From a virus: a stretch of DNA of 64,000 bases. Where the stretch lies: positions 1 through 64,000 of IMG/VR virus record IMGVR_UViG_3300037010_001382. One strand, 5' to 3'. Below are positions 23,986-59,987 of the stretch, in pieces. Both the position numbers and the translations under genes were made by a program. Within the stretch, counting starts at the first letter, position 1. Every line of letters begins with the position of its first letter. Under the pieces are notes generated by a model. That model had not been told where the DNA came from and did not search any database. It saw only the letters and a list, made by a program, of their open reading frames with translations.

Positions 23986-24058
23986 AATGAGTTAGCTCAG
24001 TTGGTTAGAGCAAGCTCTTAACCGGGCGAGGTCGGGGGTTTGAATCCCTTACTCATTA
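23986..24058 (+). tRNA. tRNA with irregular anticodon arm
   Basis: Acceptor AATGAGT (23986-23992) pairs with ACTCATT (24051-24057). The D arm GCTC/GAGC and the T arm GGGGG-TTTGAAT-CCCTT are normal. Between them, the best anticodon stem is GCTC/GGGC with a six-base loop TTAACC, so no standard seven-base loop or clear anticodon results. It may be decayed, read unusually, or a tRNA-like RNA. Confidence 0.6.
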
Positions 24059-24081
24059 CGAACATTAAATTTAGAATAATT

Positions 24082-37030: not shown

Positions 37031-37765
37031 ATGCAGCACGAAGAGGTATATATTAAACATTTTGGAAAAGAGTGGGCTGCAGTATTGCGTCCACTCTTTT
37101 TATCCAAGCCGTATAAGGAAGTGGGTCTTGCCCTGGCGAAGTTAAAGAAGGATGGCGCTCATATAACTCCTGGATATAAAAATATATTCCGAGCGTTTAA
37201 AGAATGTCCTCTTCATTCGTTACATACTATTATTATTTCTGATGATATTTATTCTGGTCTTACTTCTCAAAAGGAATGTTTGGCAGATGGAATAGCTTAT
37301 AGTTCTAATGTTAGTACAGATACCCCTCCACCCCTGAATAGCATTTTCGAAGCTATTGATTATGATGTTTTTGACTCTGAATACGTTCCTACATCAGTAT
37401 GGAAGTATGAATGGCAGGAAGCAGTTTGGGACCTGAAAACTTGGGCGAATCAAGGCATTTTAATGCTCAACAGATCGCTAACGACTCTTATTGGTACTCC
37501 ACATGCTCACACAGATTTATGGGCTCCTATTATAGATTATATTGTTTACGATACTACGTCTCGTACTCAGAATCTAGGAATTATACTTATGGGTGATCGT
37601 GTACAAGAGATAGGTAAGAGGATTAATGGCAAATCACATTTAATTCTTAAGTGTGAGAGTCCAGTAGACGCAATCGAAAGAAAGCGTTCATTCCAACACA
37701 ATCAAGTCTTTAGTGAAGTTACTAAATTTCATAAGACTATAAACAACATTAAAGTAAAATGGTAA
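37031..37765 (+). CDS. divergent uracil-DNA glycosylase (family 1), 244 aa
   Basis: The order of UNG landmarks is kept. ISDDIYSG with IAYSS (about 70-93) corresponds to GQDPYHG with LAFSV. PPPLNSIFEAI (about 97-107), WANQGILMLNRSLTT (about 138-152), LGIILMGDRVQEIGKRI (about 181-197) and CESPVDAIERKRSF (about 207-220) correspond to PPSL..I, WA.QGVLLLN..LTV, W(G)..AQ and HPSPLS. The catalytic Asp is kept, but the His of HPSPLS is not, so activity is uncertain. Expected role: remove uracil from DNA. Fits with dUTPase and SRAP in the window. Confidence 0.75.
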   Translation: MQHEEVYIKHFGKEWAAVLRPLFLSKPYKEVGLALAKLKKDGAHITPGYKNIFRAFKECPLHSLHTIIISDDIYSGLTSQKECLADGIAYSSNVSTDTPPPLNSIFEAIDYDVFDSEYVPTSVWKYEWQEAVWDLKTWANQGILMLNRSLTTLIGTPHAHTDLWAPIIDYIVYDTTSRTQNLGIILMGDRVQEIGKRINGKSHLILKCESPVDAIERKRSFQHNQVFSEVTKFHKTINNIKVKW

Positions 37766-38212: not shown

Positions 38213-38671
38213 ATGAATGAAGTAGCGAAAGGTAAGCTGCCTGTAGAAAACCTAAGGGTTGAGATTACAGAACAAACTCCTGAAGTGTTGATGTGCGTTT
38301 ATGGTACATTACGTCAAGGAGAAGGTAACTGGGGTCGTCACTTAAGGAACACTAATAGTGAATACTTAGGTACGTACAAGACTGAGCCAAAGTTCACCCT
38401 GTATGGGCGTCGTATGCCTTTTCCTTCACTCGCACCACATGGTAATACTTCTGTTGTATATGAAGTGTTTAAGGTAAAGGATAAGAGGGTTCTGGAAGGT
38501 CTACACAACTTAGAAGGTTGTACAGGCGTTCCTGGACACAATGACAATTGGTATGACATCATACCTATTGAAACACCTCATGGTCAGGGTTGGATTTACG
38601 TCCACCATGCTGAGAGGGAATCACCAGAAGTAGTAATCGTTTCTGGCGATTGGAAGAATAAAAGTGTTTAA
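38213..38671 (+). CDS. gamma-glutamylcyclotransferase-like (AIG2) protein, 152 aa
   Basis: ATG at 38213. Family signature CVYGTLRQGEGNWGRHL (about 28-44), then VVYEVFKVKDKRVLEGLHNLEG with the usual conserved acidic turn. It opens a run of amidoligase, glutamine amidotransferase and ATP-grasp genes. In predicted phage peptide-modification systems this enzyme type trims gamma-glutamyl links. The stop shares a base with the next ATG. Confidence 0.8.
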   Translation: MNEVAKGKLPVENLRVEITEQTPEVLMCVYGTLRQGEGNWGRHLRNTNSEYLGTYKTEPKFTLYGRRMPFPSLAPHGNTSVVYEVFKVKDKRVLEGLHNLEGCTGVPGHNDNWYDIIPIETPHGQGWIYVHHAERESPEVVIVSGDWKNKSV

Positions 38672-39951
38672 TGGCTCAACGAATTGATAGTGATGGAAAG
38701 GAAATAAACGTAGGAGATCGTGTTATTGTTGTTGGATTCAACACAGTAGTAGGAGAAACCTTTGTTCGTTCTTTTCTGAGAGAGAGAAAAGTTTACGGGA
38801 TAGTACTAGGTGAAGAAGTGCGTGTACGTAAGTATGTCGGAGCATCATCTGAAGTGATTGATTTTACAAAAGTAATAAAAGATCATTTTAAGAATGAGCT
38901 ACTAAATGAGTACTCGTTTTCTATGAAACATCTGAAGGTGTTAGATCCTAAAGATTATGCAGAGTATGATTTATATGCTGAACAAGCAAATGATTATATG
39001 ACTGCGCACATGAAGACAGTTGAAAACCTAGAAAAGTTACCATTACCCACAGAAAGTTATATGAATAGAAGCTTTGTTCACAAGGATATCAATCTCTTGT
39101 CGACAAAGTTAAATTGTGTAGCTGAAGGAGAATGGAATAAAGACGATAACACTTTTAAAAATGATCGTATCGCTTATCTTGTGACATGTTGTGCATTTAC
39201 GAAAACAAAACACGATTTAGAGGTATATATACCTGAATTATGGCTACGCTATTATAAGTACACAATGTACGATTTAGGCGAATGGTTAAAATTCCTTGCT
39301 AAATGTGGTATTGGTTTTGAATATGTATTATGTGGACCAAGTAAGCTTCATAATGTATTTTATGAAAACTTTGAAAAACCAATAGATGATGGATATTACA
39401 AAAAAGTAAGTCCTAAAGCTCTTGGCTCTCTTATGTATCCTAATGGACCAAGCGGTTACATTAAGTTACGTATGAAAGGATGTAAGGATGACCCAATGAT
39501 AACGTATCTGAGATTTATATGCCTAAGGTATATTTATAATCAGGCGTATTGGACAATTCCAGGACATGCAATGCAGATAAAGCGATCTCTAGGTAACGCA
39601 GTTACTTATTGGCAAGCTTTACTCATGGCACATCTATATAAGACTTATGATGGTTATTATTCTCTTGCGAATCAACATGATTTCGATCCACAGAAGCCTT
39701 ATCAGGCAGATCGAGCATTTCCGTTTAGTACAAGTAGTAACTATGATAGGCACATCAATCCTTTCCAAAGTAGAGAAGATGTTTTTAAAAGATTGAATAC
39801 ACCTCTTGCATCAATGAATCGAGCTTTTAGCTATTCATGTGACGCTTTCAAACGTGAAGATTTAAACAAGTTCTTCATTGAGAAAGATTACGTTGGCTTG
39901 TTTAAATACATAAGAGATCAAGTAGGTAAATCAAAAGTAATCGTTAAGTAG
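38671..39951 (+). CDS. unknown protein of the amidoligase cluster, 426 aa
   Basis: ATG at 38671 overlaps the preceding stop. N-terminal 60 residues look like a small beta domain (GKEINVGDRVIVVGFNTVVG). The rest is a mixed fold with many aromatics (RFICLRYIYNQAYWTIPGHAM). Part of an unbroken set of cluster genes, so it is likely a partner or the protein to be modified. Not recognised. Confidence 0.7.
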   Translation: MAQRIDSDGKEINVGDRVIVVGFNTVVGETFVRSFLRERKVYGIVLGEEVRVRKYVGASSEVIDFTKVIKDHFKNELLNEYSFSMKHLKVLDPKDYAEYDLYAEQANDYMTAHMKTVENLEKLPLPTESYMNRSFVHKDINLLSTKLNCVAEGEWNKDDNTFKNDRIAYLVTCCAFTKTKHDLEVYIPELWLRYYKYTMYDLGEWLKFLAKCGIGFEYVLCGPSKLHNVFYENFEKPIDDGYYKKVSPKALGSLMYPNGPSGYIKLRMKGCKDDPMITYLRFICLRYIYNQAYWTIPGHAMQIKRSLGNAVTYWQALLMAHLYKTYDGYYSLANQHDFDPQKPYQADRAFPFSTSSNYDRHINPFQSREDVFKRLNTPLASMNRAFSYSCDAFKREDLNKFFIEKDYVGLFKYIRDQVGKSKVIVK

Positions 39952-39980
39952 TAATAATAAAAAGCAGTTAGGCTCCCAAA

Positions 39981-40799
39981 ATGGCAGTTAAAGTATTAAA
40001 GGAAGAAGTAGGTAGTTATTTAATTGGTAGTGACGTTGAATTCTTTTTGAAGAGAAAAGATTCAGAAGAAATAGTTAGTGCTGAAGGATTAATTCAGGGT
40101 ACTAAAAAGGAGCCTTTTAAGTTTGATAAAGATGAACCGTTTTTTGCGACATCTTTGGACAATGTTATGGCAGAGGGTAATATCCCTCCAGCAAGAACTC
40201 CCGCAGAGTTTTATGCTTATGTGGAAAAGTTGCGTAATTACATTGACGCAACGATACCACAAGATTTAATGACAGTAGCAATTCCATCTGCAAGATTAGG
40301 CTTTGAACACCTAATGACAGAGAATTCTCAGGTTTTTGGATGTGATCCATCTCTTAATTGTTGGACAGGTGAGCAGGTAATACCTCAGCCTAGTGGTGAC
40401 AATTTAAGAAGTGCAGGATTTCACATCCACGTTGGTTATGAAGGTCCTAATGCTGATACAAACAGGAAAATTGCGAAAGCAATGGACTTGTTCCTTGGCG
40501 TACCTTCAATTTTGATGGAACCGGAGAATGAAAGAAAAGTTGTTGGCTATGGTTGCGCAGGTAACTATAGAGATCAGAAGCATGGCATGGAGTATCGCTC
40601 GTTGTCATCGCACTTTTCTTCTGAAGAGCGCTTAGTAAAGTGGTGTTTTGAAAGCACTGAAAAAGCTATTGCGTTTGTTAATGATAATAAGATAGAATCT
40701 ATCGATGAGTTAGGTGATACCTTACAGAACATTATTAATACAGAAGATAAGGAGCAGGCAGCGAAGATCGTAGCAGATTTCAATTTGCAGTTAGCGTAA
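39981..40799 (+). CDS. phage COOH.NH2 ligase (amidoligase), GS-like fold, 272 aa
   Basis: ATG at 39981. Matches the phage phiEco32-type COOH.NH2 ligase family: GSDVEFFLKRKD (about 17-28), EGNIPPARTPAEF (about 66-78), SAGFHIHVGY (about 140-149), GMEYRSLSSHF (about 204-214). The acidic and His/Arg residues in these strings are the predicted ATP and metal site of glutamine-synthetase-like ligases. The reaction joins a carboxyl to an amine with ATP; substrate unknown. Confidence 0.8.
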   Translation: MAVKVLKEEVGSYLIGSDVEFFLKRKDSEEIVSAEGLIQGTKKEPFKFDKDEPFFATSLDNVMAEGNIPPARTPAEFYAYVEKLRNYIDATIPQDLMTVAIPSARLGFEHLMTENSQVFGCDPSLNCWTGEQVIPQPSGDNLRSAGFHIHVGYEGPNADTNRKIAKAMDLFLGVPSILMEPENERKVVGYGCAGNYRDQKHGMEYRSLSSHFSSEERLVKWCFESTEKAIAFVNDNKIESIDELGDTLQNIINTEDKEQAAKIVADFNLQLA

Positions 40800-40826
40800 A
40801 AGAAGAAAAAAACAGTATTTTTATCA

Positions 40827-41537
40827 ATGATTACTTACAGTATTACTGATTTGGCTGGTCGTAAAGTGCGTCTCGAAAGAGCTGCATGTTACGCCAACCA
40901 TTATTCAAGATTGAAACAATTTAAGGAGTGTGTTGTAGAGGTTCCCGTAATCCATCTGCAGCATCAATACGACAAGGCGATCACATTCACAGAAGAAGAT
41001 TTTGTGGAATATGTTCGTTTGTTGAACGTTATGGGATTCAAGTTCTCTATGAAAAAAGAGAATAATGTCTTCTTATTTACTGTTAATTTTATAGAGAATA
41101 AGAATATTGCAAACAAGATAATCTTGAATGCTATTCGTTATTTGTCTGAAGATTATCTACCTTATGTACCATACTTCTTCTTGAAGTTTGCGAAAGGTAA
41201 GATGTTTGGTGTCAATTTATGGACCAGATTCATGATGGCGCATTATGCCCATGATAATTTCTCTAATAACGGTCATACAATATGCAATGGCGCATGTTTG
41301 CCTAAGATTCTTACCAATGCTATCTTCAAGGAGAAAATATTGGATAATGACGCAGAAATGTATGCATCATCAGTGATACCTCATGGTACTAAACCTATTA
41401 TGGGTTATAATCCTAATTTGCCAGCCGTAGAACGTCACCTTAATTACACAAAGGATTACAAAACATTAATAAAACAAGATGGCCTTTTTAAGGACATTTT
41501 CAAAGAATACAAAGCAGTATGCGTAAGATTTATGTAG
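40827..41537 (+). CDS. unknown protein of the amidoligase cluster, 236 aa
   Basis: ATG at 40827. Mixed alpha/beta with conserved-looking Trp, His and Asn in NLWTRFMMAHYAHDNFSNNGH (about 131-151). Overlaps the next gene by 19 bp. Not recognised. Confidence 0.65.
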   Translation: MITYSITDLAGRKVRLERAACYANHYSRLKQFKECVVEVPVIHLQHQYDKAITFTEEDFVEYVRLLNVMGFKFSMKKENNVFLFTVNFIENKNIANKIILNAIRYLSEDYLPYVPYFFLKFAKGKMFGVNLWTRFMMAHYAHDNFSNNGHTICNGACLPKILTNAIFKEKILDNDAEMYASSVIPHGTKPIMGYNPNLPAVERHLNYTKDYKTLIKQDGLFKDIFKEYKAVCVRFM

Positions 41538-42175
41538 TAGGATCTGTCAATAATTATGCCAGATGGATGGAAGGTGCAATTGTTCAGGATTTAGAAGATG
41601 CTGACCTTGTAGTGTTCACAGGTGGTGAGGATGTACATCCTGACTTCTATGGACAACCTTCTCATCCGCAAACGTACTCGAATAAACAACGAGATCGTTA
41701 TGAAATGAAAATTTACGAAGCTGCAATACAAAAAGGCAAACATATAATTGGGATCTGTCGTGGATCCCAATTTTTATGTGTTGCGAATGGTGGGCATTTG
41801 GTGCAGCACCAAGATAATCCACATTACATTCACCCTATCAATATGTTGGATGGCACTGTGTTAGATATTACATCTACACATCATCAAGCAGCATATCCGT
41901 TTGTTTTGCCTAAAGATGAATATCATATCTTAGGCTGGACAGAAGGAATTTCTCCGTTTCATGAGGATGGCAATAAAACGGAGTTAAATCCTGAAAAGGA
42001 ATGTGAAATTGTTTATTATCCTAAGAGTAAATGCTTAGGAATACAAGGACACCCCGAATCAATGCCTACTTCCCATGAAACAATTGCGTATTTGCGCAAG
42101 TTATTAAATGCCTTTTTAATCAACAAAATTGATATTTATGTCACCAAGGAAGAAAGCAGCGCCCGTAGCAATTAA
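41519..42175 (+). CDS. class I glutamine amidotransferase (peptidase C26-like), 218 aa
   Basis: ATG at 41519. Nucleophile elbow IIGICRGSQFLCV with Cys80; the oxyanion and Gly motif VVFTGGEDVHPDFYG (about 31-45); the His-Glu pair in GIQGHPESMP near 180. This matches PuuD-type gamma-glutamyl hydrolases/GATase I. In amidoligase clusters this fold is predicted to hydrolyse gamma-glutamyl amides or supply ammonia. Confidence 0.85.
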   Translation: MRKIYVVGSVNNYARWMEGAIVQDLEDADLVVFTGGEDVHPDFYGQPSHPQTYSNKQRDRYEMKIYEAAIQKGKHIIGICRGSQFLCVANGGHLVQHQDNPHYIHPINMLDGTVLDITSTHHQAAYPFVLPKDEYHILGWTEGISPFHEDGNKTELNPEKECEIVYYPKSKCLGIQGHPESMPTSHETIAYLRKLLNAFLINKIDIYVTKEESSARSN

Positions 42176-43121
42176 AAGACCTCGTAAGGCAGCACCAGCA
42201 GCACCTATCACATTCAGGCCGAAGATTCGTTCTCGTCATCCTTCTCATGGTCATCTGAGAGGCCATTTACCAATGTTACCAGTTCAATCTGTGATCCGCT
42301 TAGGCAGTTCTACACCAATTGAAGGTACTGTTGCGTTAGGTGGTAGGATAATAGAGATCAATACTATCGCAGCAATTGCTAACTCAGCTAATAAAAAGCT
42401 GATGAAACAATGCTTCGATCATGCCGGCGTTATGTCTGCAGATTGGTTCATACGTGATCGTCAAGGTAATTTCTATTTGCAGCAAGGAATAGGAGTAGAT
42501 CCTATACTTACACCGATAGCAGAATTACCTTATCCTTTACTGGCTAAAGGCCATATGGGATCTCGCGGTCGCATGAACCATAAGTTCGAGAACCAGGCAG
42601 AACTGGAAGCTTGGATGCCTCATAAAGATACAAGTATCTATATCTTTGAGAAGTATTACAACTTCACACGTGAGTATCGCCTTCATGTAACAGCTGAAGG
42701 TTGTTTTTACACATGTCGCAAGATGCTTAAGAGAGATGCTGAAAAAGCAGGTGCTTGGCAGCGTCATGATGACAATTGTGTATGGTTTTTGGAGACCAAT
42801 CCTGGTTTCGACAAACCTGCTAATTGGGATGAAATCGTTGAAAATTGTAAAGAAGCATTGCTTTCTACAGAGCTTGATATTGCTTCTTTTGATGTTCGCG
42901 TTCAATCCGCAAGAGATGCGCAGCAGCGTGTTCGTGAAAGATGTGAATTCATCATTATCGAGTGCAATAGCGCAAGCAGCTTAGGTGAATACAGACCAGG
43001 GCAACCTAGTGTTGTAGCAACTAAGTATGTTGAAGTCCTTCCAAGAGTAATATTGAAGAAGGCAAGAGAATACGGTATGATACCTGCAGAAGTAGTTGCT
43101 CCTGTGGCCGTGCCAGCATAG
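42138..43121 (+). CDS. ATP-grasp ligase, 327 aa
   Basis: Start set at ATG 42138 rather than TTG 42129; it overlaps the preceding gene by 38 bp. Ala/Pro/Lys-rich first 50 residues. ATP-grasp features: ANKKLMKQCFDHAGVMSADWF (about 85-105), PLLAKGHMGSRGRMNHKF (ATP lysine and glycine loop, about 132-149), YIFEKYYNFTREYRLHV (about 165-181) and a metal-site end IIIECNSASSLGEY (about 274-287, carrying E and N). Forms amide or peptide bonds through an acyl phosphate. Confidence 0.8.
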   Translation: MSPRKKAAPVAIKRPRKAAPAAPITFRPKIRSRHPSHGHLRGHLPMLPVQSVIRLGSSTPIEGTVALGGRIIEINTIAAIANSANKKLMKQCFDHAGVMSADWFIRDRQGNFYLQQGIGVDPILTPIAELPYPLLAKGHMGSRGRMNHKFENQAELEAWMPHKDTSIYIFEKYYNFTREYRLHVTAEGCFYTCRKMLKRDAEKAGAWQRHDDNCVWFLETNPGFDKPANWDEIVENCKEALLSTELDIASFDVRVQSARDAQQRVRERCEFIIIECNSASSLGEYRPGQPSVVATKYVEVLPRVILKKAREYGMIPAEVVAPVAVPA

Positions 43122-43141
43122 TAAATTAAAGAAGAAAGAGC

Positions 43142-45580
43142 ATGTGCGGAATCGCAGGTTTCTCAGGCCATAAGGCCCTGACAAAAGAACAAGCAAAAAT
43201 TGCAGTCAACAAAATGAAGATCCTTGGATTGTTTAATCAATCTAGGGGCACTCATGGCTGTGGTTTGTATATCAATGGGACGATAATCAAGGGGATTGAG
43301 GATCTTGTAGCGAAGAAGAATACTAAAGAATTTGCAAAGTTCATTAGCGATCCTGACTTCATATGGCCTGATTTTGATGTTACTAAGGGTAATGTAATGA
43401 TATTACATACTCGTATGGCAACTCACGGAGCACATACAGAAGCAAATACTCACCCCTTTTTTATAAAATCAGAGAACCCAGTCAATAACCTTGTAGGTGT
43501 GCATAATGGTACACTTGACAATGCCTGGGAACTACTGAAAAAGTATGACGTCGATGCTGTAAAAGAGCACATTCATGTGGATAGTAAAGCGCTGTACACA
43601 CTAATTGACCGAGTTGGTCTTAATATTCTTGAAGAATATAAAGGTGCAGCTGCGTTAGTGTGGAGTAAGCCTTCAGATCCTCGTACATTGTATGCGTTTC
43701 ATGGTTCTTATTATAAGGATCGTAAAGACAAACAATTGTACGAAGAACGTCCTATGCACTGGATGAAGACGGCAGAAGGTATATACTTCTCGAGTATGCC
43801 GGAATCGCTTTTTGCGATAAGAGAAAGTGATAAACAAGAAGTTGAAACTCTTGAGTACAATACAGTATTCAAAGTTACTAATGGTAAGTTTACTACTACA
43901 AAAGTTGAGATAAAAAGAGAGAATACTAACTTAAAGCCAGAGTACACTCCTGTACCTGCTAGAGCACAAGTAATCCCTTTCAACGAGCAGCAGACTACTC
44001 CGATGAGTTCCCGCAACGCAAGAACAATCGTAGAAGACACAGAACGCACAGAGCGTATGATCCGCATGAGGAATGCGACTGCAGATAAGAAAGATAAGTT
44101 GCTTAATGTACCTAAATCTTCTCTTGTTTGGCGTGAAACAAAGCCTGCTAAAAGTGTCTCAGTACGTTTGGATGAAATTGTATATTTCTGGAAAGGACGT
44201 TATCACAGAAGTTCTGGTGATAAGTTCTGTAACGGACTGTTATACATTGCTGATCGCGGCGTAATTACAACAGATGCTGATAAAGTAGCAAGTAAGTTCT
44301 ACTTCTATGAAGGCGTACTTATGAAGAATGCTACAGCATGGGAAGCATTAGTACAAGAAGCAAACATGAAAGATTCATGGGTACATGATCTCTCGTCGAT
44401 GTATGCCTATAATATTAGTCGTTTCTCACAACATCCAGTAACCCACTTAGATTCTGAGTGTGTAGATGGCGAAGATTACTTCAGATACAGTTGGTATTTG
44501 GATGAACGTAGAGTAACATCTAAGTATCGTCCATTATTCTCTGGTCGTTGTTATCATATCGATGATGGCTTCTTAGTTACTATCATTCCTAGTAATGGGG
44601 ATGAAAAGAAAACTATAGAAGGCGATCTTGATGATATAGTTACAGCTTTGGAAAACAAGTTCACTGTATTACCTGGAGATGTTTGTTGTACTACACCTGT
44701 AGGATATACTCAAACAAGCGTATTTGACATAGTTTTTAATGATGTACCAACATTGTTTGAAACTTTGAACTATGAGGAAATGGAAGCATTATCACGCTTT
44801 GCGCATGATAAACTGTTAAACGAAAACAAGAGTAACGATCTTGAATGCGTACAGGCTGAAGTTCATTTAACCATTAAGAACGGTGTTGCTTCAAAGAAAA
44901 CAATCAGAGAAGCATTCAACGATCAGGATCATTTACTCAATGGATATTTAAAAGTTATCCTCGATGAGAAAGTTGATACTGTAGAAGCATTAGATGTTGT
45001 TAATACAACTGCTCCATTTAACACAAATGAAGACGATGATATTGATGATGATCAAGTTGGCGATTTGACTCCTGAAGAGCAAAAAGCTGCTGATGATGCA
45101 TGGGCTAAATGGGGTAATTTTCGTGGTGTAGGTTCTGGTAGGCCAAAAGGTAGTGAGGACAGACCAGGAGCTTTGGTCGATGCGGAAAGTCCCTTTCCCA
45201 ACTTGCTCGACGACGACGTTGAAACACAAAACTTTCACGTTGCCCAATTCCTCGGAACTAATGGTGACGAAGAAAAAGAAGACCACTTTGTGGAACACTT
45301 TGAAGCAGACATGGAGCGAGCTTTGGAGTTAAAGAAAATAAAACAACAAATAGCTTTTCTGAAAAGTGATAGTGATAAGGTGGAAGAAGTGATTGATGAC
45401 TTAGGTGAGATTGAGCTTAAAGCGGATGAACTTCGCTTGAGTAAAACTGATCTTGGTAAAGATTGTTCCTTTCATATTTACAAAGGATTAAGTATGCTTA
45501 AACATGCGTTGTCAAATGTGTGTGAAATACATTTTCAGGACGACTTGGTAAAGAAGTTAAATTTAGTAATACGCGCTTAA
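43142..45580 (+). CDS. class II glutamine amidotransferase with long C-terminal extension, 812 aa
   Basis: Starts MCGIAGFSG; Cys2 is the Ntn-hydrolase nucleophile. GATase II landmarks: SRGTHGCGLYING (about 33-45), VMILHTRMATHGAHTEANTHPF (about 82-103), LVGVHNGTLDN (about 116-126), then a Asp/Ser region. The domain spans about 1-235. The remaining 575 residues are unlike known synthetases: a mixed region with RYHRSSGDKFC, an acidic segment (NEDDDIDDDQVGDL) and a charged helical end. It may supply NH3 to, or scaffold, the ligases around it. Confidence 0.8.
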   Translation: MCGIAGFSGHKALTKEQAKIAVNKMKILGLFNQSRGTHGCGLYINGTIIKGIEDLVAKKNTKEFAKFISDPDFIWPDFDVTKGNVMILHTRMATHGAHTEANTHPFFIKSENPVNNLVGVHNGTLDNAWELLKKYDVDAVKEHIHVDSKALYTLIDRVGLNILEEYKGAAALVWSKPSDPRTLYAFHGSYYKDRKDKQLYEERPMHWMKTAEGIYFSSMPESLFAIRESDKQEVETLEYNTVFKVTNGKFTTTKVEIKRENTNLKPEYTPVPARAQVIPFNEQQTTPMSSRNARTIVEDTERTERMIRMRNATADKKDKLLNVPKSSLVWRETKPAKSVSVRLDEIVYFWKGRYHRSSGDKFCNGLLYIADRGVITTDADKVASKFYFYEGVLMKNATAWEALVQEANMKDSWVHDLSSMYAYNISRFSQHPVTHLDSECVDGEDYFRYSWYLDERRVTSKYRPLFSGRCYHIDDGFLVTIIPSNGDEKKTIEGDLDDIVTALENKFTVLPGDVCCTTPVGYTQTSVFDIVFNDVPTLFETLNYEEMEALSRFAHDKLLNENKSNDLECVQAEVHLTIKNGVASKKTIREAFNDQDHLLNGYLKVILDEKVDTVEALDVVNTTAPFNTNEDDDIDDDQVGDLTPEEQKAADDAWAKWGNFRGVGSGRPKGSEDRPGALVDAESPFPNLLDDDVETQNFHVAQFLGTNGDEEKEDHFVEHFEADMERALELKKIKQQIAFLKSDSDKVEEVIDDLGEIELKADELRLSKTDLGKDCSFHIYKGLSMLKHALSNVCEIHFQDDLVKKLNLVIRA

Positions 45581-45585
45581 TAAGA

Positions 45586-47100
45586 ATGATTTCATATAAA
45601 GACGATCCGAAGCTTAAGCTTCAGGTTGTAACGACAGTTACAGGAGATAAGGAATATCGTAGGAATTGCAAGAATATTGGGCAGAAGTACTACGTAATAG
45701 ATAAGGACTGTTTCTTAGTCGAGGGAAAATGGTACAGGGTGGAGTCAGGCAAGATTGAGTTTGACCACGAAAAAAAAGTGTGGCATTTGAAGACCAAGAA
45801 TAACCTGTCAAAAGGTGTTGTTGGTATAGGCCCACTTGGGGCTTTTGTTTATGGGCAGTTCACACCAAACATTTACAACAATTGTAAAGTGTATGATAGA
45901 CTTACAGGTAACAATGTACTTGCTATTAATAGTGAAGTGTTGCAAACGAATGGCTATTTTGAAGATATCGCAACCAATATCTGGTATTATTCTAAGGAGA
46001 TGACTTCCAATCAGATTAAGAAGATGCAGAGTATCAGAAATGAAGTAAACTTTCAAAATAAAGGTTACAACATTGAAGACAATGCTGTTGAATTTGATCA
46101 GAAGAAGGAGTCATACGCGAATTTTCCAACAGTTATAAGTAAGGAAGCCCGAGCTTATGGTAAACTGCTTGGTGATACAACATTTGGTGCTGAAATAGAA
46201 ACTTCGGAGGGTAACCTTCCTAATTCTGCTCAGTACCGAATGGGATTAGTAGGTTGTCGTGATGGTAGCATTAATTCAGCGGAATGGGTAACTGTTCCTA
46301 TGGCTGGTGCTAAAGGTGTACAAAATCTTGTTGATGTTTCAGAAGTTGTTTCGGCACGTTGTAACATTGACATTAATTGTTCATTACATTATCACTTCGG
46401 TAACATACCAAAGTCGAGAGAATATCTGGTAGCATTGTATACGCTTGCGTATAAGATGCAGGATGATGTATTTAAGATGTTTCCGTACTTTAAAACGGAT
46501 CATCGTGGGATCAAAAAGAAGAATTATTGCCAGAAGTTAAAGAAGATGAGTATTTATGTTTGTAAAGATCTGTCAAAGGAAGGATACGACACTTACATCA
46601 ATGAAATGTATGTAAGGATATTTACTTTTTTATCTGATGGTACTCCGCCAGGTGAGAATGCTAATAGGAAGCGTCAACAACATCCTATTCAGAATAAGTG
46701 GGATCGCAAGTCTCGTTATTTCTGGCTGAATCTGCAGAACATGATCTTTAGTGAACGTGAGACAGCAGAGTTCAGATTGCATACTGCCACTACGAATAAA
46801 GTAAAAATGATCAGTTGGTTGTTTATGTGTAATGCAATCGTTAAGTATGCGGAAGCAAATCTTAAAGAAATCATAACCAACCCTGATAAGATTTCTTTTA
46901 CGAAAGTATTAAAGTATTATGAAAGTCACTTTCCTGATAATAAAATAGCTAAATACTTAAGCGATTATTTGATTTCGTACTACGAGAGCAGATGTGTTGT
47001 ATTTGCTAAGGATTTTGAAAGAAGTGACTTCCTGAGTGAGCATGATATTAAGAGTGATAAGAAGTTTGATTTCGTCTATGACGGTCTTAAGTTGTTATAA
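45586..47100 (+). CDS. putative amidoligase (PF12224-type), 504 aa
   Basis: ATG at 45586. The amidoligase core begins at about 200: TTFGAEIETSEG, CRDGSINSAEWVTVP (about 224-238), CSLHYHFGNIP (about 266-276), and ETAEFRLHTATTNK near 393-406. These match the E-x-E, acidic and HxH features of amidoligase enzymes, a different branch from the one at 39981. The 190-residue N-terminal part is extra and unrecognised. Last gene of the cluster. Confidence 0.8.
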   Translation: MISYKDDPKLKLQVVTTVTGDKEYRRNCKNIGQKYYVIDKDCFLVEGKWYRVESGKIEFDHEKKVWHLKTKNNLSKGVVGIGPLGAFVYGQFTPNIYNNCKVYDRLTGNNVLAINSEVLQTNGYFEDIATNIWYYSKEMTSNQIKKMQSIRNEVNFQNKGYNIEDNAVEFDQKKESYANFPTVISKEARAYGKLLGDTTFGAEIETSEGNLPNSAQYRMGLVGCRDGSINSAEWVTVPMAGAKGVQNLVDVSEVVSARCNIDINCSLHYHFGNIPKSREYLVALYTLAYKMQDDVFKMFPYFKTDHRGIKKKNYCQKLKKMSIYVCKDLSKEGYDTYINEMYVRIFTFLSDGTPPGENANRKRQQHPIQNKWDRKSRYFWLNLQNMIFSERETAEFRLHTATTNKVKMISWLFMCNAIVKYAEANLKEIITNPDKISFTKVLKYYESHFPDNKIAKYLSDYLISYYESRCVVFAKDFERSDFLSEHDIKSDKKFDFVYDGLKLL

Positions 47101-47158: not shown

Positions 47159-47190
47159 TTTGTTTTTATCATTATTTATTCGTACCTTTG
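47159..47190 (+). promoter_or_regulatory. Bacteroidota-type promoter for the GIY-YIG gene
   Basis: TTTG (47159-47162), 20-nt gap, TACCTTTG (47183-47190), then six bases to ATG 47197. A short hairpin-poor gap of 58 bp precedes it after the amidoligase stop. Confidence 0.8.
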
Positions 47191-47196
47191 TATCCT

Positions 47197-47682
47197 ATGT
47201 GGATATATAAAGGACAAATAATAGAATCGGCTGAAGATTTACCTAGAGATGTTGTTGGTTTCATTTATGTGATGACTAACAAAGAATCTGGACGTAGATA
47301 TATAGGCAAGAAATACATTTACTCAGAACGTAAGAAATCACTTACGAAAAAAGAGATTGCATTACTTGAGAATAAAAGACTCAAGAAATGGAAAACAGTA
47401 ATTACAGAATCTGATTGGCTTACTTATACTTCATCCTCTAAAGATGTTAATGAAGAAATTAAGAATGGTCAAGAATTCTATAGGGAAATTATCGAATTTA
47501 CTTATAGCAAGATTCAAACTACATATTTAGAAGTAAAACTTCAGTTTGTTTATAATGTTTTGGAATCTGATGAATGGTATAATGGTAACATTAATCATCA
47601 TTGGTTCAAGGGCAACATCGGAATGGATCATGACACCAGAGAGCGTGGAAGAGATCCTCTTACAGATGAAAATCACGCGTAG
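47197..47682 (+). CDS. GIY-YIG-like nuclease, 161 aa
   Basis: Start set at ATG 47197 behind the promoter. GIY-YIG core: GFIYVMTNKESGRRYIGKKY (about 22-41), then KWKTVITESDWLTYTSSSKDV, and a Glu late in the domain. The YIGKK..W..Y.SS layout is that of free-standing phage endonucleases related to T4 EndoII/Seg types. A near-leaderless promoter, like that of the HNH genes, fits a homing gene. Confidence 0.8.
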   Translation: MWIYKGQIIESAEDLPRDVVGFIYVMTNKESGRRYIGKKYIYSERKKSLTKKEIALLENKRLKKWKTVITESDWLTYTSSSKDVNEEIKNGQEFYREIIEFTYSKIQTTYLEVKLQFVYNVLESDEWYNGNINHHWFKGNIGMDHDTRERGRDPLTDENHA

Positions 47683-55729: not shown

Positions 55730-56421
55730 ATGAAAAATTACAAATTATATGGAGCTATCTTGGGAGATTTAGCTGGTCAACCATATGAATTTCCTCCAAT
55801 GAAAGGTCCATATAATAATGTAGATCTTCATAATCCTAAAGCGCATATTACTGATGATACTATTATGACTTTAGCTTCTGCAGATCATATCATGTATGGC
55901 GAGAGAGATAAATTATCTATATCTCAATACTATAAATGGTGGGGTAACATGTATCCAGAAGCAGGCTATGGTAAAGGCTTAATGTAGTTGGTACATCTTG
56001 GGGCAATGGATGTTTGATGCGTGCATCTCCATTTATTTGGTCTAATGATCTGCAGGCACTGATAAGATCAGTTCAATCAAGTCATAATCACCAATATAGT
56101 TTAGAAGCAGCTTTCGAGTTGTGGAAAGCTTATAAATCAAGAAAATCGAATTTGTTTGTATCTCCTTGTGATTTTGAAGAATTTAAAGTAGATGCGAAGT
56201 CTACGATGGATTTTTGCCTGCAGATGTTCTATCATCCAGGTTCATTACAAAGAGCTATTATTAAGACGATAGAATGTGGTGGTGATACAGATACTAATGC
56301 GTCAATTGTAGGTGAATATTTCAACTATCAAATGGGCGGTATTACTAAACAAGATGCTGAGTACGTAGAATCAAAGCTGGATAAGCGTCAATTAAACATA
56401 CTTTTAAAATTCAATAAGTAA
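55730..56421 (+). pseudogene. ADP-ribosylglycohydrolase, frameshifted
   Basis: The first frame (55730-55987) reads LYGAILGDLAGQPYEFPP, then ITDDTIMTLASADHI (the metal-binding TDDT), and YPEAGYGKG, then stops. The second frame continues the same family: GTSWGNGCLMRASPFIW, then IECGGDTDTNASIVGEYF (the second metal site, GGDTDT). The frames differ by one base at about 55976-55990, with a few residues also missing. So this enzyme, which removes ADP-ribose from targets, is broken unless frameshifting occurs. It lies directly upstream of NAD metabolism genes. Confidence 0.8.
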
Positions 56422-56426
56422 CCGTT

Positions 56427-57314
56427 ATGCGCACATTAAACCTGGCACATGCAGATAAAGGCGATATACCCTACAAGGTTATCGCCTTTTCTGATAGCCA
56501 AAAACTCATTAACCTTGATGGCATTTATGCTAAAGGTAATACAAACATCGAGAAATCTGTTCAGATTACATCTCGCATGACATGGGAAGATGTTCAACTG
56601 ATTATATGTGCTAAAAAGGCTTTGGAAGAAGCTGGATTTAAGGAGATACATTTGTATGTTCCTTATTTCTTAGGTGCAAGATCAGATCGCAAATTCCAAA
56701 ATGGAAGTATTAACTATCTTAAGCATTTAATATGTCCAATTATAAATAACTTACAGTTTAAATCTGTGACTGTTTATGATCCACATAGTTTTTGCCTAGA
56801 GATGGGTTTAGAGAACTTCAAATGTATTAATAGTTCTAATTTGATTAGGCACTTTCTCGAGCAGGAGAAATCTAATCTTAAGAATGCAATGTGGTTAATT
56901 CCTGATAAAGGAGCTTCTGCAAAAGCTAAAGAATTAATAATAGATTCTAATTACGATGATCAGCTTGGAGAAGTCGTTGTTTGTGATAAAATCAGAGACA
57001 TACCTACAGGCAAGATTATAAAAACAGTAGTGCCTGTGATGGAATTTCATGGCAGGGACGCATTCATCGTAGACGACATATGCGATGGAGGAGGAACATT
57101 TATAGAGATTGCTAAAGTATGTAAACAACATAATGTTGGCAACATGTACTTAGTAGTTTCTCACGGTATCTTCAGTAAAGGTCTTGGCGAACTCGCACAG
57201 TACTTCCAGGGAATATATTGCACAAATTCAATAAACGATTTGAGTAAGGGTGATTCTATAAATGTCAATAACAAGGACGGCAAACTACTTGTAAAACAAT
57301 TGCCGATAGTATAA
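56427..57314 (+). CDS. PRPP-synthetase-like enzyme, 295 aa
   Basis: ATG at 56427. Ribose-phosphate pyrophosphokinase family: N-terminal domain with VYDPHSF (about 115-121) and the PRPP loop GRDAFIVDDICDGGGTFIEIA (about 209-229). Known reaction: ribose-5-phosphate plus ATP to PRPP. A related phage enzyme is known that instead pyrophosphorylates ADP-ribose in the NARP1 route; sequence alone does not tell these apart here. Next genes are a HAD protein and NAMPT-like. Confidence 0.8.
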   Translation: MRTLNLAHADKGDIPYKVIAFSDSQKLINLDGIYAKGNTNIEKSVQITSRMTWEDVQLIICAKKALEEAGFKEIHLYVPYFLGARSDRKFQNGSINYLKHLICPIINNLQFKSVTVYDPHSFCLEMGLENFKCINSSNLIRHFLEQEKSNLKNAMWLIPDKGASAKAKELIIDSNYDDQLGEVVVCDKIRDIPTGKIIKTVVPVMEFHGRDAFIVDDICDGGGTFIEIAKVCKQHNVGNMYLVVSHGIFSKGLGELAQYFQGIYCTNSINDLSKGDSINVNNKDGKLLVKQLPIV

Positions 57315-57316
57315 TT

Positions 57317-57889
57317 ATGTGGAATCCATTTAAGAAGAAAACTCCTTTACCTTCAGTGAACGATCTGAAGCGAGTACAGGAGAAAGAGCCTATTGACTTT
57401 TGGAGTTCAAGACACCGATTTGCTGAAGAGCAGTATAAGGTGCCTGATAATGACAATTGGAAAGGTAATAAGTATGCAGAAAGACTCATTAAAGAGTGGT
57501 TAGAACATGGTAAGATTGTTTTAGCTGTCGACTTCGATGACACCATCTATGGATGGGGATTCAAAGATTTCAAATCTAATGTGATGTTTAGTAAGACGAT
57601 ACAAATCATAAAGATGGCTCAAAAGCTTGGATGTTACGTATCAATTTGGAGCGCATGTGCGCCAGACAGGTATGACGAAATACGTAATTATGCAAAGTTT
57701 AACCAGTTTGTTATTGATAGTATCAATGAAAATCCTATCCCATTACCTTACGGTAATAACCGTAAAATGTATTACAATCATCTATTAGATGATAGAGCAG
57801 GTCTTGAACAGGCATTGTCTGTACTTGAATATTGTTGTTATCGTGTGATGAGTGATCGTAAGGTCAAAACAGACAATTTCGAAGTTTAA
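57317..57889 (+). CDS. HAD-superfamily phosphatase-like protein, 190 aa
   Basis: ATG at 57317. HAD motif I VLAVDFDDTIYGWG (about 73-86), motif II region VSIWSAC, and a late Asp pair NHLLDDRAGLEQAL (about 156-169). These give a DxDxT nucleophile and metal site. Likely hydrolyses a phosphorylated small molecule. Position between PRPP-synthetase-like and NAMPT-like genes suggests a nucleotide-related substrate. Confidence 0.75.
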   Translation: MWNPFKKKTPLPSVNDLKRVQEKEPIDFWSSRHRFAEEQYKVPDNDNWKGNKYAERLIKEWLEHGKIVLAVDFDDTIYGWGFKDFKSNVMFSKTIQIIKMAQKLGCYVSIWSACAPDRYDEIRNYAKFNQFVIDSINENPIPLPYGNNRKMYYNHLLDDRAGLEQALSVLEYCCYRVMSDRKVKTDNFEV

Positions 57890-57898
57890 AAAGTAAGA

Positions 57899-58162
57899 AT
57901 GAAAAAGTTAACAATGTTTTTCCGAGTGATACTCGGAATAAAGCAATCTGCGGTAATTGAGATGCAGAAGAAGAGTAATAACGTTTTTAACGTTTTCACA
58001 AAGACTCTTAACGATCTCAAGGAAATAAACGGGATGATTGAATCCTATAAACAAGTCAAGCTTGACGTGATAGCAGCTGCACAAGTTGAACATGACGACT
58101 TGCATTCTCAGCTTGAAACTAACAACAAAATGGTTGTCAAGCTTGAGGATTTTGTAAAATAA
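57899..58162 (+). CDS. coiled-coil protein, 87 aa
   Basis: ATG at 57899. Helical, charged, heptad-like (FTKTLNDLKEINGMIESYKQ). No family recognised. Confidence 0.6.
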   Translation: MKKLTMFFRVILGIKQSAVIEMQKKSNNVFNVFTKTLNDLKEINGMIESYKQVKLDVIAAAQVEHDDLHSQLETNNKMVVKLEDFVK

Positions 58163-58190
58163 TCCTTAACAAAAAAAACAAATAAAAAGA

Positions 58191-59987
58191 GTGAGACAGA
58201 TCCAAGTATTGAATCAAACTGACTTCTACAAAGTAGGTCACCATCCTATGTACCCTGGAGGTACTACTAGGATTTATAGTAATTTAACCCCGCGCAAATC
58301 GAGAGAGAAAGGTGTAAATGAAGTAGTTGTTTTTGGGATTCAATACTTCGTTCTGGAGTATTTGATTGAACAATGGAACTCCAACTTCTTTCACACGCCA
58401 TTAGGCCACATTGCGAAGGAAGTGAAACAGCAGAGGCTGGCCCGTTATAAACGTATGATGGATAATACTCTCGGAAAAGATACTGTGAAAACAGAACATA
58501 TTGAGAAGCTTTGGGATTTAGGTTATATGCCTCTTAAGATTAAGGCTCTAGCTGAAGGTACTCTATGTCCGATAGGAATTCCTTGTTTAACTATTACGAA
58601 TACTGTAGATCATGCATTTTGGTTGGTAAATTATCTGGAAACTATTCTGTCTTGTACAGTATGGCAACCGATGACTTCAGCTACAAAAGCATTACAGTAT
58701 CGTAAGATACTCGAAAAATATGCATTACAAACTACAGGATCTATTCAAGGAGTTCAATGGCAAGGTCATGACTTTTCTATGCGTGGCATGTCTAGTCTTG
58801 AGTCTGCTTGCACGAGCGGAGCTGGGCATTTGCTTTCTTTTACTGGGACCGATATAATACCTGCTATTGAATTTCTTGAGCAGTATTACGGTGCAAATGT
58901 GGAAGAAGATCTTGTTGGAGCTTCTGTTCCTGCTACTGAACATTCCGTTATGTGTATGGGTCTTAAGGATGGGGAAATAAATACATTTGAGCGTTTGCTT
59001 GATTTGTATCCTACAGGTATCTTATCTGTAGTCTCTGATACTTGGGATTTGTGGAACGTAGTAAAGAAAGGTGGTATTTGCGACCAGTTAAAAAGTAAGA
59101 TCTTAGCTAGAAATGGCAAGCTTGTAATTCGTCCTGATTCAGGAGATCCTGTTGATATCATTTGTGGACAAGAGATAGATGATATAAAAGCAGAAGATAT
59201 TGATTCTGCAAAACTTTGGATGAAAGATTTACTAAGGCAAAAAGTGAGAGAGGAAACTCCTCATGGAGAAGCCGGTGATCCAAATCCTAGTGCTACTTAC
59301 AAGTTTCAAGGTAAGTACTACAAGATCACACTGGAAATTGAATGGAATCGCTATGATAAGCAATTTTACTTTATAGATGGATGTACCATAAAATCATTTG
59401 AAGAAGTTGAAGCTACACCTGCAATGAAGGGTGTAATTGAATGCTTATATGATGTGTTTGGCGGTACAAGATCGACTGAAGGATATATTGAGCTGATTGA
59501 TAAAATTGGCGCTATATATGGCGATTCTATAACTGAAGACAGAGCAGAACGTATCTGTAGTCGCTTAATGGCTAAAGGCTATGCTTCTACTAATGTTGTG
59601 TTCGGCATAGGTTCATTTACTTACCAGCATAATACTCGCGATACTTTTGGTTTTGCCATGAAGGCTACCTATGGTGAAGTTGCTATTGAATGTGGATGTG
59701 GAGAGGGTTATCAAAATCCTACCTGCTTACAGAATGGTAATGGTCGCATCTGTACTGAAGCTCGTGAGATCTTCAAGGATCCTATCACTGATTCAGGCGA
59801 AAAGAAGTCTGCACGTGGCTTGTTGCGTGTAGATCGTAATGAGGAGGGTAAAGTTACTCTCTACCAACAGCAGACGAAAGAACAAGAGGAAGGTGGTTTA
59901 TTACAGACTATATTCCTTGACGGTAAAATGGTTAAAACATTTACGTTAACAGAGGTTCGTGAGAATCTCAAAAATGCTACAAAATAA
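58191..59987 (+). CDS. nicotinamide phosphoribosyltransferase-like (NAMPT), 598 aa
   Basis: GTG start at 58191. NAMPT landmarks: TDFYKVGHHPMYPGGTTRIYSNLTPR (about 10-35), FSMRGMSSLESA, GASVPATEHSVM (about 242-253), VSDTWDLW and VIRPDSGDPV (about 310-319). The usual reaction is nicotinamide plus PRPP to NMN. At about 100 residues longer than typical NAMPT, it has an insertion near 322-400 (DIKAEDIDSAKLWMKDLLRQ..). The relation to NARP1 Namat enzymes, which are NAMPT-like, is open. A NMNAT-like gene at 27.2 kb could finish NAD+ synthesis. Confidence 0.85.
   Translation: MRQIQVLNQTDFYKVGHHPMYPGGTTRIYSNLTPRKSREKGVNEVVVFGIQYFVLEYLIEQWNSNFFHTPLGHIAKEVKQQRLARYKRMMDNTLGKDTVKTEHIEKLWDLGYMPLKIKALAEGTLCPIGIPCLTITNTVDHAFWLVNYLETILSCTVWQPMTSATKALQYRKILEKYALQTTGSIQGVQWQGHDFSMRGMSSLESACTSGAGHLLSFTGTDIIPAIEFLEQYYGANVEEDLVGASVPATEHSVMCMGLKDGEINTFERLLDLYPTGILSVVSDTWDLWNVVKKGGICDQLKSKILARNGKLVIRPDSGDPVDIICGQEIDDIKAEDIDSAKLWMKDLLRQKVREETPHGEAGDPNPSATYKFQGKYYKITLEIEWNRYDKQFYFIDGCTIKSFEEVEATPAMKGVIECLYDVFGGTRSTEGYIELIDKIGAIYGDSITEDRAERICSRLMAKGYASTNVVFGIGSFTYQHNTRDTFGFAMKATYGEVAIECGCGEGYQNPTCLQNGNGRICTEAREIFKDPITDSGEKKSARGLLRVDRNEEGKVTLYQQQTKEQEEGGLLQTIFLDGKMVKTFTLTEVRENLKNATK

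What the first reader, a model, noticed from the sequence alone, without database searches (positions are those of the whole stretch)
38213..47100. Phage-encoded peptide/amide synthesis cluster with two amidoligases, ATP-grasp and two glutamine amidotransferases
Eight adjacent or overlapping genes include a GGCT-like protein, a COOH.NH2 ligase, a class I GAT, an ATP-grasp ligase, a 812-aa class II GAT and a second, different amidoligase. Motifs for each are visible. Comparative genomics has predicted such amidoligase systems in phages to build peptide-like conjugates on cell wall or virion components, but products are unknown. This set is unusually complete and holds two unrecognised partners (38671, 40827) and a 575-residue extension on the class II GAT. 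It is the best candidate here for an undescribed system.
Basis: partly seen in the sequence, partly recalled or inferred. Interest (0 to 1): 0.85.

Follow-up and report, generated by a model that had tools for sequence, protein, structure and literature searches.

The report
Known phage amide-ligase cassette, new lineage
The eight genes are a real and intact example of a widespread but biochemically untested phage gene cassette that probably builds an unusual amide-linked peptide early in infection, and its two unexplained genes appear to belong to one fast-changing, unannotated protein family that accompanies the cassette in distantly related phages.

Summary
In detail: all eight ORFs are at the stated coordinates, tightly packed on one strand, and six match the named families with catalytic residues intact. 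The reading as an undescribed system does not hold: the same enzyme set is known as a putative "peptidoglycan modification cassette" of LUZ24/PaP3, phiEco32, RIO-1 and other phages. I found its ligase in about 310 phage records and 446 IMG/VR contigs, but at only 2 places in a scan of 84,980 prokaryote genomes. The window is part of a 126 kb crAss-related phage record whose nearest isolate infects a cyanobacterium. New here: 40827 belongs to an unannotated partner family beside the ligase or class I GAT in Crassvirales cassettes (profile match) and in Grimontviridae and Lahexavirus cassettes (fold match). The C-terminal half of 38671 is a weaker but significant member, so the "two partners" are probably paralogues. 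The partner diverges about twice as fast as the enzymes. The GAT "extension" is a linker, a variable beta region and a coiled coil, with no sign of a second enzyme. Product and target remain unknown; a gamma-glutamyl-type conjugate made early, most plausibly for the host envelope, is my best reading.

The parts
38213..38671 (+). GGCT/GGACT: gamma-glutamyl cyclotransferase-like protein, 152 aa
   Evidence: PF06094 E 1.6e-12, phrog_2520 E 5.9e-14; YGxL loop Y30-G31-L33 and E101 in 100% of 39-40 homologues
38671..39951 (+). U1: partner-family paralogue, 426 aa, long N-terminal extension plus partner-like C-terminal half (residues about 284-420)
   Evidence: partner HMM 20.6 bits, E 3.9e-5 among 2203 ORFs; best of 3000 shuffles 9.8 bits, best reversed ORF 11.5 bits; absent from the sister contig L011
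39981..40799 (+). CN: phiEco32-like COOH.NH2 ligase type 2, 272 aa
   Evidence: PF14395 E 6.6e-11, phrog_3815 E 1.7e-53; E20, K42, E65, H148, H150, R185, R197, E204, R206 invariant in 80-81 homologues
40827..41537 (+). U2: partner family, 236 aa, no annotated family
   Evidence: profile-profile match to the crAss partner family, probability 95, E 3e-8; AF2 core fairly confident, top BFVD fold hits are cassette partner proteins of cr108_1, GAP52 and LAh phages
41519..42175 (+). GAT1: class I glutamine amidotransferase / peptidase C26 (gamma-glutamyl hydrolase type), 218 aa
   Evidence: PF07722 E 1.6e-21, phrog_7218 E 8.8e-40; C80, H178, E180 conserved in 95-100% of 63-64 homologues
42129..43121 (+). 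ATPG: RimK-like ATP-grasp ligase, 330 aa (327 aa from ATG 42138)
   Evidence: phrog_2599 E 7.7e-17, TIGR00768 E 6e-4; K89, E182, R184, K198, D255, E278 100% and N280 95% in 84 homologues
43142..45580 (+). GAT2: class II glutamine amidotransferase, 812 aa: Ntn glutaminase domain 1-256, low-confidence linker, small beta region about 340-480, coiled coil about 714-795
   Evidence: PF13522 E 1.1e-13; C2, R91, N122, G123, D147 100%; AF2 pLDDT above 90 for most of 1-256, GlmS glutaminase domain 1xff E 6e-11
45586..47100 (+). AMD: Amidoligase_2 family ligase, 504 aa
   Evidence: PF12224 E 2.1e-7, phrog_2443 E 6.4e-28; E203, E205, H268, H270, E395, R397 100% in 77-79 homologues

Best explanation
This is a phage-specific biosynthetic cassette of the known LUZ24/PaP3/phiEco32 type, probably transcribed as one early operon. 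Shown by sequence: three ATP-dependent carboxylate-amine ligases with intact active sites (CN, AMD, ATPG), a class II glutaminase (GAT2) without a recognisable synthase domain of its own, and two enzymes of families that remove gamma-glutamyl groups (GAT1, a PuuD-type C26 hydrolase, and GGCT). Inferred: CN starts by making a gamma-glutamyl amide, ATPG and AMD add two further amide bonds, GAT2 supplies ammonia or glutamate from glutamine, and GAT1 and GGCT remove protecting gamma-glutamyl groups, as PuuA/PuuD and BtrJ/BtrG do in putrescine use and butirosin synthesis (established knowledge of those pathways). The partner proteins (40827 and the C-terminal half of 38671) are proposed to be non-catalytic assembly or specificity subunits that bring the ligases to a variable target. 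The most plausible target is a peptide of the host envelope, changed during infection to exclude competing phages.
For: Family matches and complete catalytic signatures. Core CN, ATPG, GAT2 and AMD recur together in 90 loci (81, 79, 85 and 79 loci; GAT1 59, GGCT 40). Same enzyme types in cr108_1, PaP3, phi14:2, EK010 and GAP52. The cassette sits beside primase, UDG-like and exonuclease genes and not beside structural genes, which in this record lie on the other strand from about 64 kb onward; in UFV-P2 it lies in the early-gene module (PMC3890496). Nearly absent from prokaryote genomes: 2 places in a pattern scan of 84,980 species genomes. Partner family: and two out-of-sample hits directly upstream of GAT1 (E 3.9e-30 and 9.2e-17). 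Partner identity to the sister contig is 23-26% against 45-57% for the enzymes, as expected of a subunit that contacts a changing target. Prior proposal of envelope modification: PMC5498523, PMC11945000, PMC10580990.
Against: No product, substrate or phenotype is known for any member; the envelope target is carried over from earlier predictions and no gene in the window supports it. No cell-wall gene was seen linked to the cassette. Fast divergence of the partner could also be relaxed constraint. The U2 model is only moderately confident (mean pLDDT 68) and its role is a guess. The order of reactions is inferred.
Confidence: 0.42

Rival explanations
1. The cassette makes a free small molecule (a gamma-glutamyl peptide or amide) that counters a host defence or reroutes host metabolism inside the cell, not an envelope modification.
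For: Early, replication-module location; phage-restricted distribution across very different hosts, as expected of an arms-race trait; a NAD+-salvage-like gene pair lies in the same phage about 9-13 kb away, and beside the cassette in Lbo-JY46.
Against: No transporter, sensor or immunity gene in the cassette; dedicated, duplicated partner proteins are more than a simple metabolite pathway needs.
Confidence: 0.27
2. The ligases tag proteins (host or phage) with amino acids, as RimK does on ribosomal protein S6.
For: ATPG is nearest to the RimK/S6 group (phrog_2599, TIGR00768); rapidly diverging partner proteins could be adaptors or acceptors.
Against: Three ligases plus two gamma-glutamyl-removing enzymes and a glutaminase fit stepwise small-molecule assembly better; the partners carry no conserved C-terminal acceptor tail.
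Confidence: 0.14
3. Nucleobase hypermodification of phage DNA with an amide-linked amino compound.
For: Position next to primase, UDG-like and exonuclease genes in Crassvirales.
Against: No recognised DNA-modification enzyme is common to the loci examined; native DNA of cassette-carrying phage tf was cut with HaeIII and sequenced directly (PMC3517423), though that tests few sites.
Confidence: 0.07
4. Auxiliary nitrogen and amino-acid metabolism genes, as proposed for Planctomycete phage ZRK32.
For: Proposed in PMC10945688; glutaminase and ligase families are nitrogen enzymes.
Against: The CN ligase is practically absent from host genomes, so it is not a borrowed host pathway; the dedicated partner family and three ligases are unexplained.
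Confidence: 0.06

Closest known systems
Putative peptidoglycan modification cassette of LUZ24/PaP3, tf, phiEco32, 7-11, RIO-1 and PSA-HP1 podoviruses (Iyer 2009 and Hardies 2013 as cited in PMC5498523, PMC10580990, PMC11945000)
   Same: Same enzyme families and early-region location; PaP3 has GGCT, ATP-grasp, class II GAT, amidoligase and COOH.NH2 ligase plus unannotated ORFs at the same place
   Different: Different gene order; the X family between CN and AMD is absent here; U1 and a much longer class II GAT are present; about 33-35% identity in CN
Cassettes of Crassvirales phages cr108_1 and phi14:2
   Same: Same core enzymes, same neighbours (primase, UDG), and in cr108_1 a pair of partner paralogues gp029/gp030
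   Different: cr108_1 lacks an annotated GGCT and phi14:2 lacks GAT1; here GAT1 and ATPG separate CN from GAT2
Leptolyngbya phage Lbo-JY46 (PP438436)
   Same: Nearest isolated relative: CN 46%, AMD 40%, GGCT 44%, TerL 36.5% identity; GAT2 similarity runs to residue 482
   Different: Its own paralogous pair of unknown proteins (97304/97305) shows no detectable similarity to U1/U2; gene order differs
Gamma-glutamyl protection pathways: PuuA/PuuD (putrescine) and BtrJ/BtrG (butirosin), from general knowledge
   Same: Pairing of a glutamyl ligase with a C26 hydrolase or a GGCT that removes the glutamyl group
   Different: Mechanistic analogy only; no membership tested beyond the C26 and GGCT families

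Membership tests
LUZ24/phiEco32-type phage amidoligase ('peptidoglycan modification') cassette | PF14395 COOH.NH2 ligase with GS-like catalytic residues | tested here: met
LUZ24/phiEco32-type phage amidoligase ('peptidoglycan modification') cassette | PF12224 amidoligase and RimK-like ATP-grasp ligase in the same operon | tested here: met
LUZ24/phiEco32-type phage amidoligase ('peptidoglycan modification') cassette | class II GAT with Cys2 nucleophile; GAT1 and GGCT as common companions | tested here: met
LUZ24/phiEco32-type phage amidoligase ('peptidoglycan modification') cassette | location among early or replication genes | tested here: met
   location tested by neighbours; expression timing not tested
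LUZ24/phiEco32-type phage amidoligase ('peptidoglycan modification') cassette | actually modifies peptidoglycan | not testable with these tools
   not shown for any member in the papers found
Partner family (cr108_1 gp029/gp030 type): U2 = 40827 | profile match and position next to CN or GAT1 | tested here: met
   hhalign probability 95, E 3e-8; BFVD fold hits
Partner family (cr108_1 gp029/gp030 type): U1 = 38671 | profile match above shuffled and reversed controls | tested here: met
   20.6 bits against maxima of 9.8 and 11.5; covers the C-terminal half only; hhalign with the single sequence is weak (probability 16)
Partner family extended to all podovirus cassettes (PaP3 orf49/orf50, EK010 gp103/gp104, Y and X families) | profile or fold match | tested here: inconclusive
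   fold matches for GAP52, LAh_6 and LAh_8 only; PaP3 and EK010 proteins not clearly above controls; N-terminal C[FYW][GAS] motif enrichment weak outside the family, p 0.011
CN and AMD as one GS/GCS2-like superfamily | same ordered ExE, HxH, ExR signature and overall homology | tested here: inconclusive
   signature present in both (in CN the first motif is DxE) but profile-profile alignment only reaches the HxH motif, probability 8

The most novel reading that the evidence does not exclude
The cassette is a modular phage biosynthetic machine whose target is set by a fast-evolving, duplicated family of non-catalytic partner proteins, so that one conserved ligase chemistry is directed to different host structures in proteobacterial, Bacteroidota and cyanobacterial hosts.
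Probability: 0.15. Interest if true: 0.75.

Novelty: new member of a known kind. Interest (0 to 1): 0.4.

Why it matters
The cassette is common in cultured phages (over 300 records) and in Crassvirales-type phages, yet no product has been reported in the papers found. Recognising that its unexplained ORFs include one phage-specific, duplicated, rapidly diverging family gives a concrete handle: pull-downs, deletions and complexes can be designed around that family in laboratory phages such as LUZ24- or phiEco32-like phages and crAss-type isolates.

Tried and rejected
Direct searches for relatives of 38671 and 40827 in viral contigs and phage records found nothing; only family profiles built from fetched loci revealed the link. 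PDB sequence searches with AMD, ATPG, CN and the partner profile gave no credible relative. Foldseek of the partner model against the PDB gave nothing (best E 0.075, TM about 0.2). The idea that the GAT2 extension is a second catalytic domain was rejected. A universal C[FYW][GAS] signature uniting all unknown partners was tested and not upheld beyond the core family. A bacterial origin was tested with a genome scan and not supported (the scan uses two peptide patterns, so distant bacterial relatives could be missed). Extra large proteins in some loci were checked for informative chemistry: one is DNA polymerase, the rest unknown. Promoter scan found no excess of sigma-70-like sites. The original papers of Iyer 2009 and Hardies 2013 were not read (Iyer 2009 not held; Hardies not looked up), so their content is taken from citing papers.

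Full report
What is there. Eight ORFs at the stated coordinates are confirmed on the + strand, packed with gaps of -47 to +30 bp. For each enzyme I built a profile from 90 loci and listed near-invariant columns: the catalytic residues are present in the window for all six. The two amidoligases share an ordered signature (D/ExE, HxH, ExR), but a profile-profile comparison aligns only the HxH motif, so a common fold is likely from the Pfam descriptions yet not shown here.

It is a known kind. The COOH.NH2 ligase has relatives in 312 phage records and in 446 IMG/VR contigs. PaP3, cr108_1, phi14:2, EK010, GAP52 and others carry the same set or most of it. PMC5498523 calls it a 'Peptidoglycan Modification Cassette' and lists RIO-1, phiEco32, 7-11, PA11, tf, MR299-2, LUZ24, PaP3 and CW02 as carriers; PMC11945000 uses 'peptidoglycan modification module'; PMC10580990 repeats the superinfection idea; PMC10945688 instead proposes nitrogen metabolism. 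No biochemical demonstration was found. In my 90 loci CN, ATPG, GAT2 and AMD are the core (found in 81, 79, 85 and 79 loci), GAT1 (59) and GGCT (40) are frequent companions; many loci are cut by contig ends, so these are minima.

Which phage. The window is bases 1-64000 of a 125,973-base IMG/VR record. TerL is closest to Leptolyngbya phage Lbo-JY46 (36.5%), then to crAss-type phages such as Cellulophaga phi4:1 and phi17:2. The host is therefore open: Bacteroidota and cyanobacteria are both possible. A syntenic sister contig, L011 (118.7 kb), keeps primase, UDG-like gene, GGCT, CN, U2, GAT1, ATPG, GAT2, AMD, GIY-YIG gene and exonuclease in the same order but lacks 38671.

The two unknown partners. 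40827 (U2) matches a family in crAss-type cassettes: cr108_1 gp029/gp030, L008, L014, L043, L057, L063 (hhalign probability 95, E 3e-8). cr108_1 gp029 and gp030 are themselves similar (phmmer E 3e-8 in a small set), and L014 and L057 also hold two copies. With a profile of 12 members, a search of all 2203 ORFs of the loci gives 18 proteins below E 2e-3 (the 12 members, one duplicate and five new); 17 of the 18 lie in a cassette. Among the new ones 38671 (U1) scores E 3.9e-5 through its C-terminal half; one ORF in L042 outside the cassette scores similarly. Against 3000 shuffles (best 9.8 bits) and all reversed ORFs (best 11.5 bits) the 20.6 bits of U1 stand out. U1 and U2 are therefore probably paralogues, which mirrors the pairs elsewhere. 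An AlphaFold2 model of U2 (mean pLDDT 68, first 145 residues about 80, pTM 0.65) matches nothing in the PDB, but in the viral library the four best hits and the eighth are cr108_1 300 aa, a crAss-like 295 aa protein, Cronobacter GAP52 290 aa, Aeromonas LAh_6 266 aa and LAh_8 290 aa (TM-scores 0.35-0.40 against the query). By length these correspond to cr108_1 gp030, GAP52 gp028 and LAh_8 gp008, and the LAh_6 protein to the relative of LAh_8 gp005; each of those lies beside the COOH.NH2 ligase or GGCT of its cassette. Two loci from prokaryote assemblies that played no part in model building carry a partner immediately upstream of GAT1 (E 3.9e-30 and 9.2e-17). Extension to all podovirus partners (PaP3 orf49/50, EK010 gp103/104) is not supported by profiles and only hinted at by a short motif. 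U2 is 23-26% identical between the window and L011, where the enzymes (GAT2 counted by its glutaminase domain) are 45-57% identical: the partner is the fastest-changing cassette component.

The GAT2 extension. Similarity to Lbo-JY46 and phi14:2 runs to residue 482. The model has a confident glutaminase domain (1-256), a low-confidence linker, a small beta region to about 480, then mostly low-confidence sequence and a helical coiled-coil end. Structural matches are glutaminase domains of GlmS, GFAT, asparagine synthetase and PurF, covering the N-terminal part. There is no sign of a synthase or isomerase partner domain, so ammonia or glutamate must be handed on in trans, or the enzyme acts as a plain glutaminase (inference).

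How it probably works. The content fits stepwise assembly of an amide-linked product with gamma-glutamyl protection and deprotection. That part rests on family knowledge, not on assays. The location among early and replication genes argues against a virion-decorating role. The envelope target is inherited from earlier predictions; my data neither confirm nor exclude it. The near absence of CN from 84,980 prokaryote genomes (2 hits in a pattern scan) argues against a borrowed host nitrogen pathway. Direct restriction and sequencing of tf DNA is mild evidence against DNA hypermodification.

Verdict. Observation confirmed; interpretation partly supported; a new member of a known but biochemically uncharacterised kind, with one useful addition: the partner family.

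Noticed in passing
window 56014-59987: PRPP-synthetase-like gene (56427, phrog_619 E 1e-56), phosphoheptose-isomerase-like gene (57317), NAMPT/NAPRT-like gene (58191, phrog_448 E 2e-181, two matched stretches so a possible insertion) and an ADP-ribosylglycohydrolase-like fragment (56014): resembles a phage NAD+ reconstitution (NARP1-like Adps/Namat) set; Lbo-JY46 has PncB- and PrsA-annotated relatives right next to its amidoligase cassette.
   Followed up: partly
L011 16309-18738; L019 about 12.6-15 kb; L098 12249-14321: The amidoligase (AMD) gene is split by ORFs that look like homing endonucleases (HNH-like in L011, LAGLIDADG in L019), suggesting that AMD is a repeated intron insertion site.
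   Followed up: partly
L011 12115-14036: The 165-aa ORF after GAT1 and the roughly 190-aa N-terminal extension of the ATP-grasp protein look like paralogues of each other: another duplicated unknown domain, one copy fused to the ligase.
   Followed up: no
window 47188-47682: GIY-YIG SegE-like homing endonuclease gene directly after the amidoligase, kept in the sister contig L011.
   Followed up: no
window 37031-37765: Protein in the same cluster as crAss uracil-DNA glycosylases, no Pfam hit; adjacent to the cassette in many Crassvirales loci.
   Followed up: no
L016 13872-14549, L018, L019, L040, L042, L066, L083: A second, divergent Ntn-type amidotransferase (mostly starting MC[LV]I) accompanies the cassette in some loci.
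   Followed up: no
window 23986-24059: tRNA-like gene with an irregular two-base anticodon call by ARAGORN, among five ordinary tRNAs.
   Followed up: no
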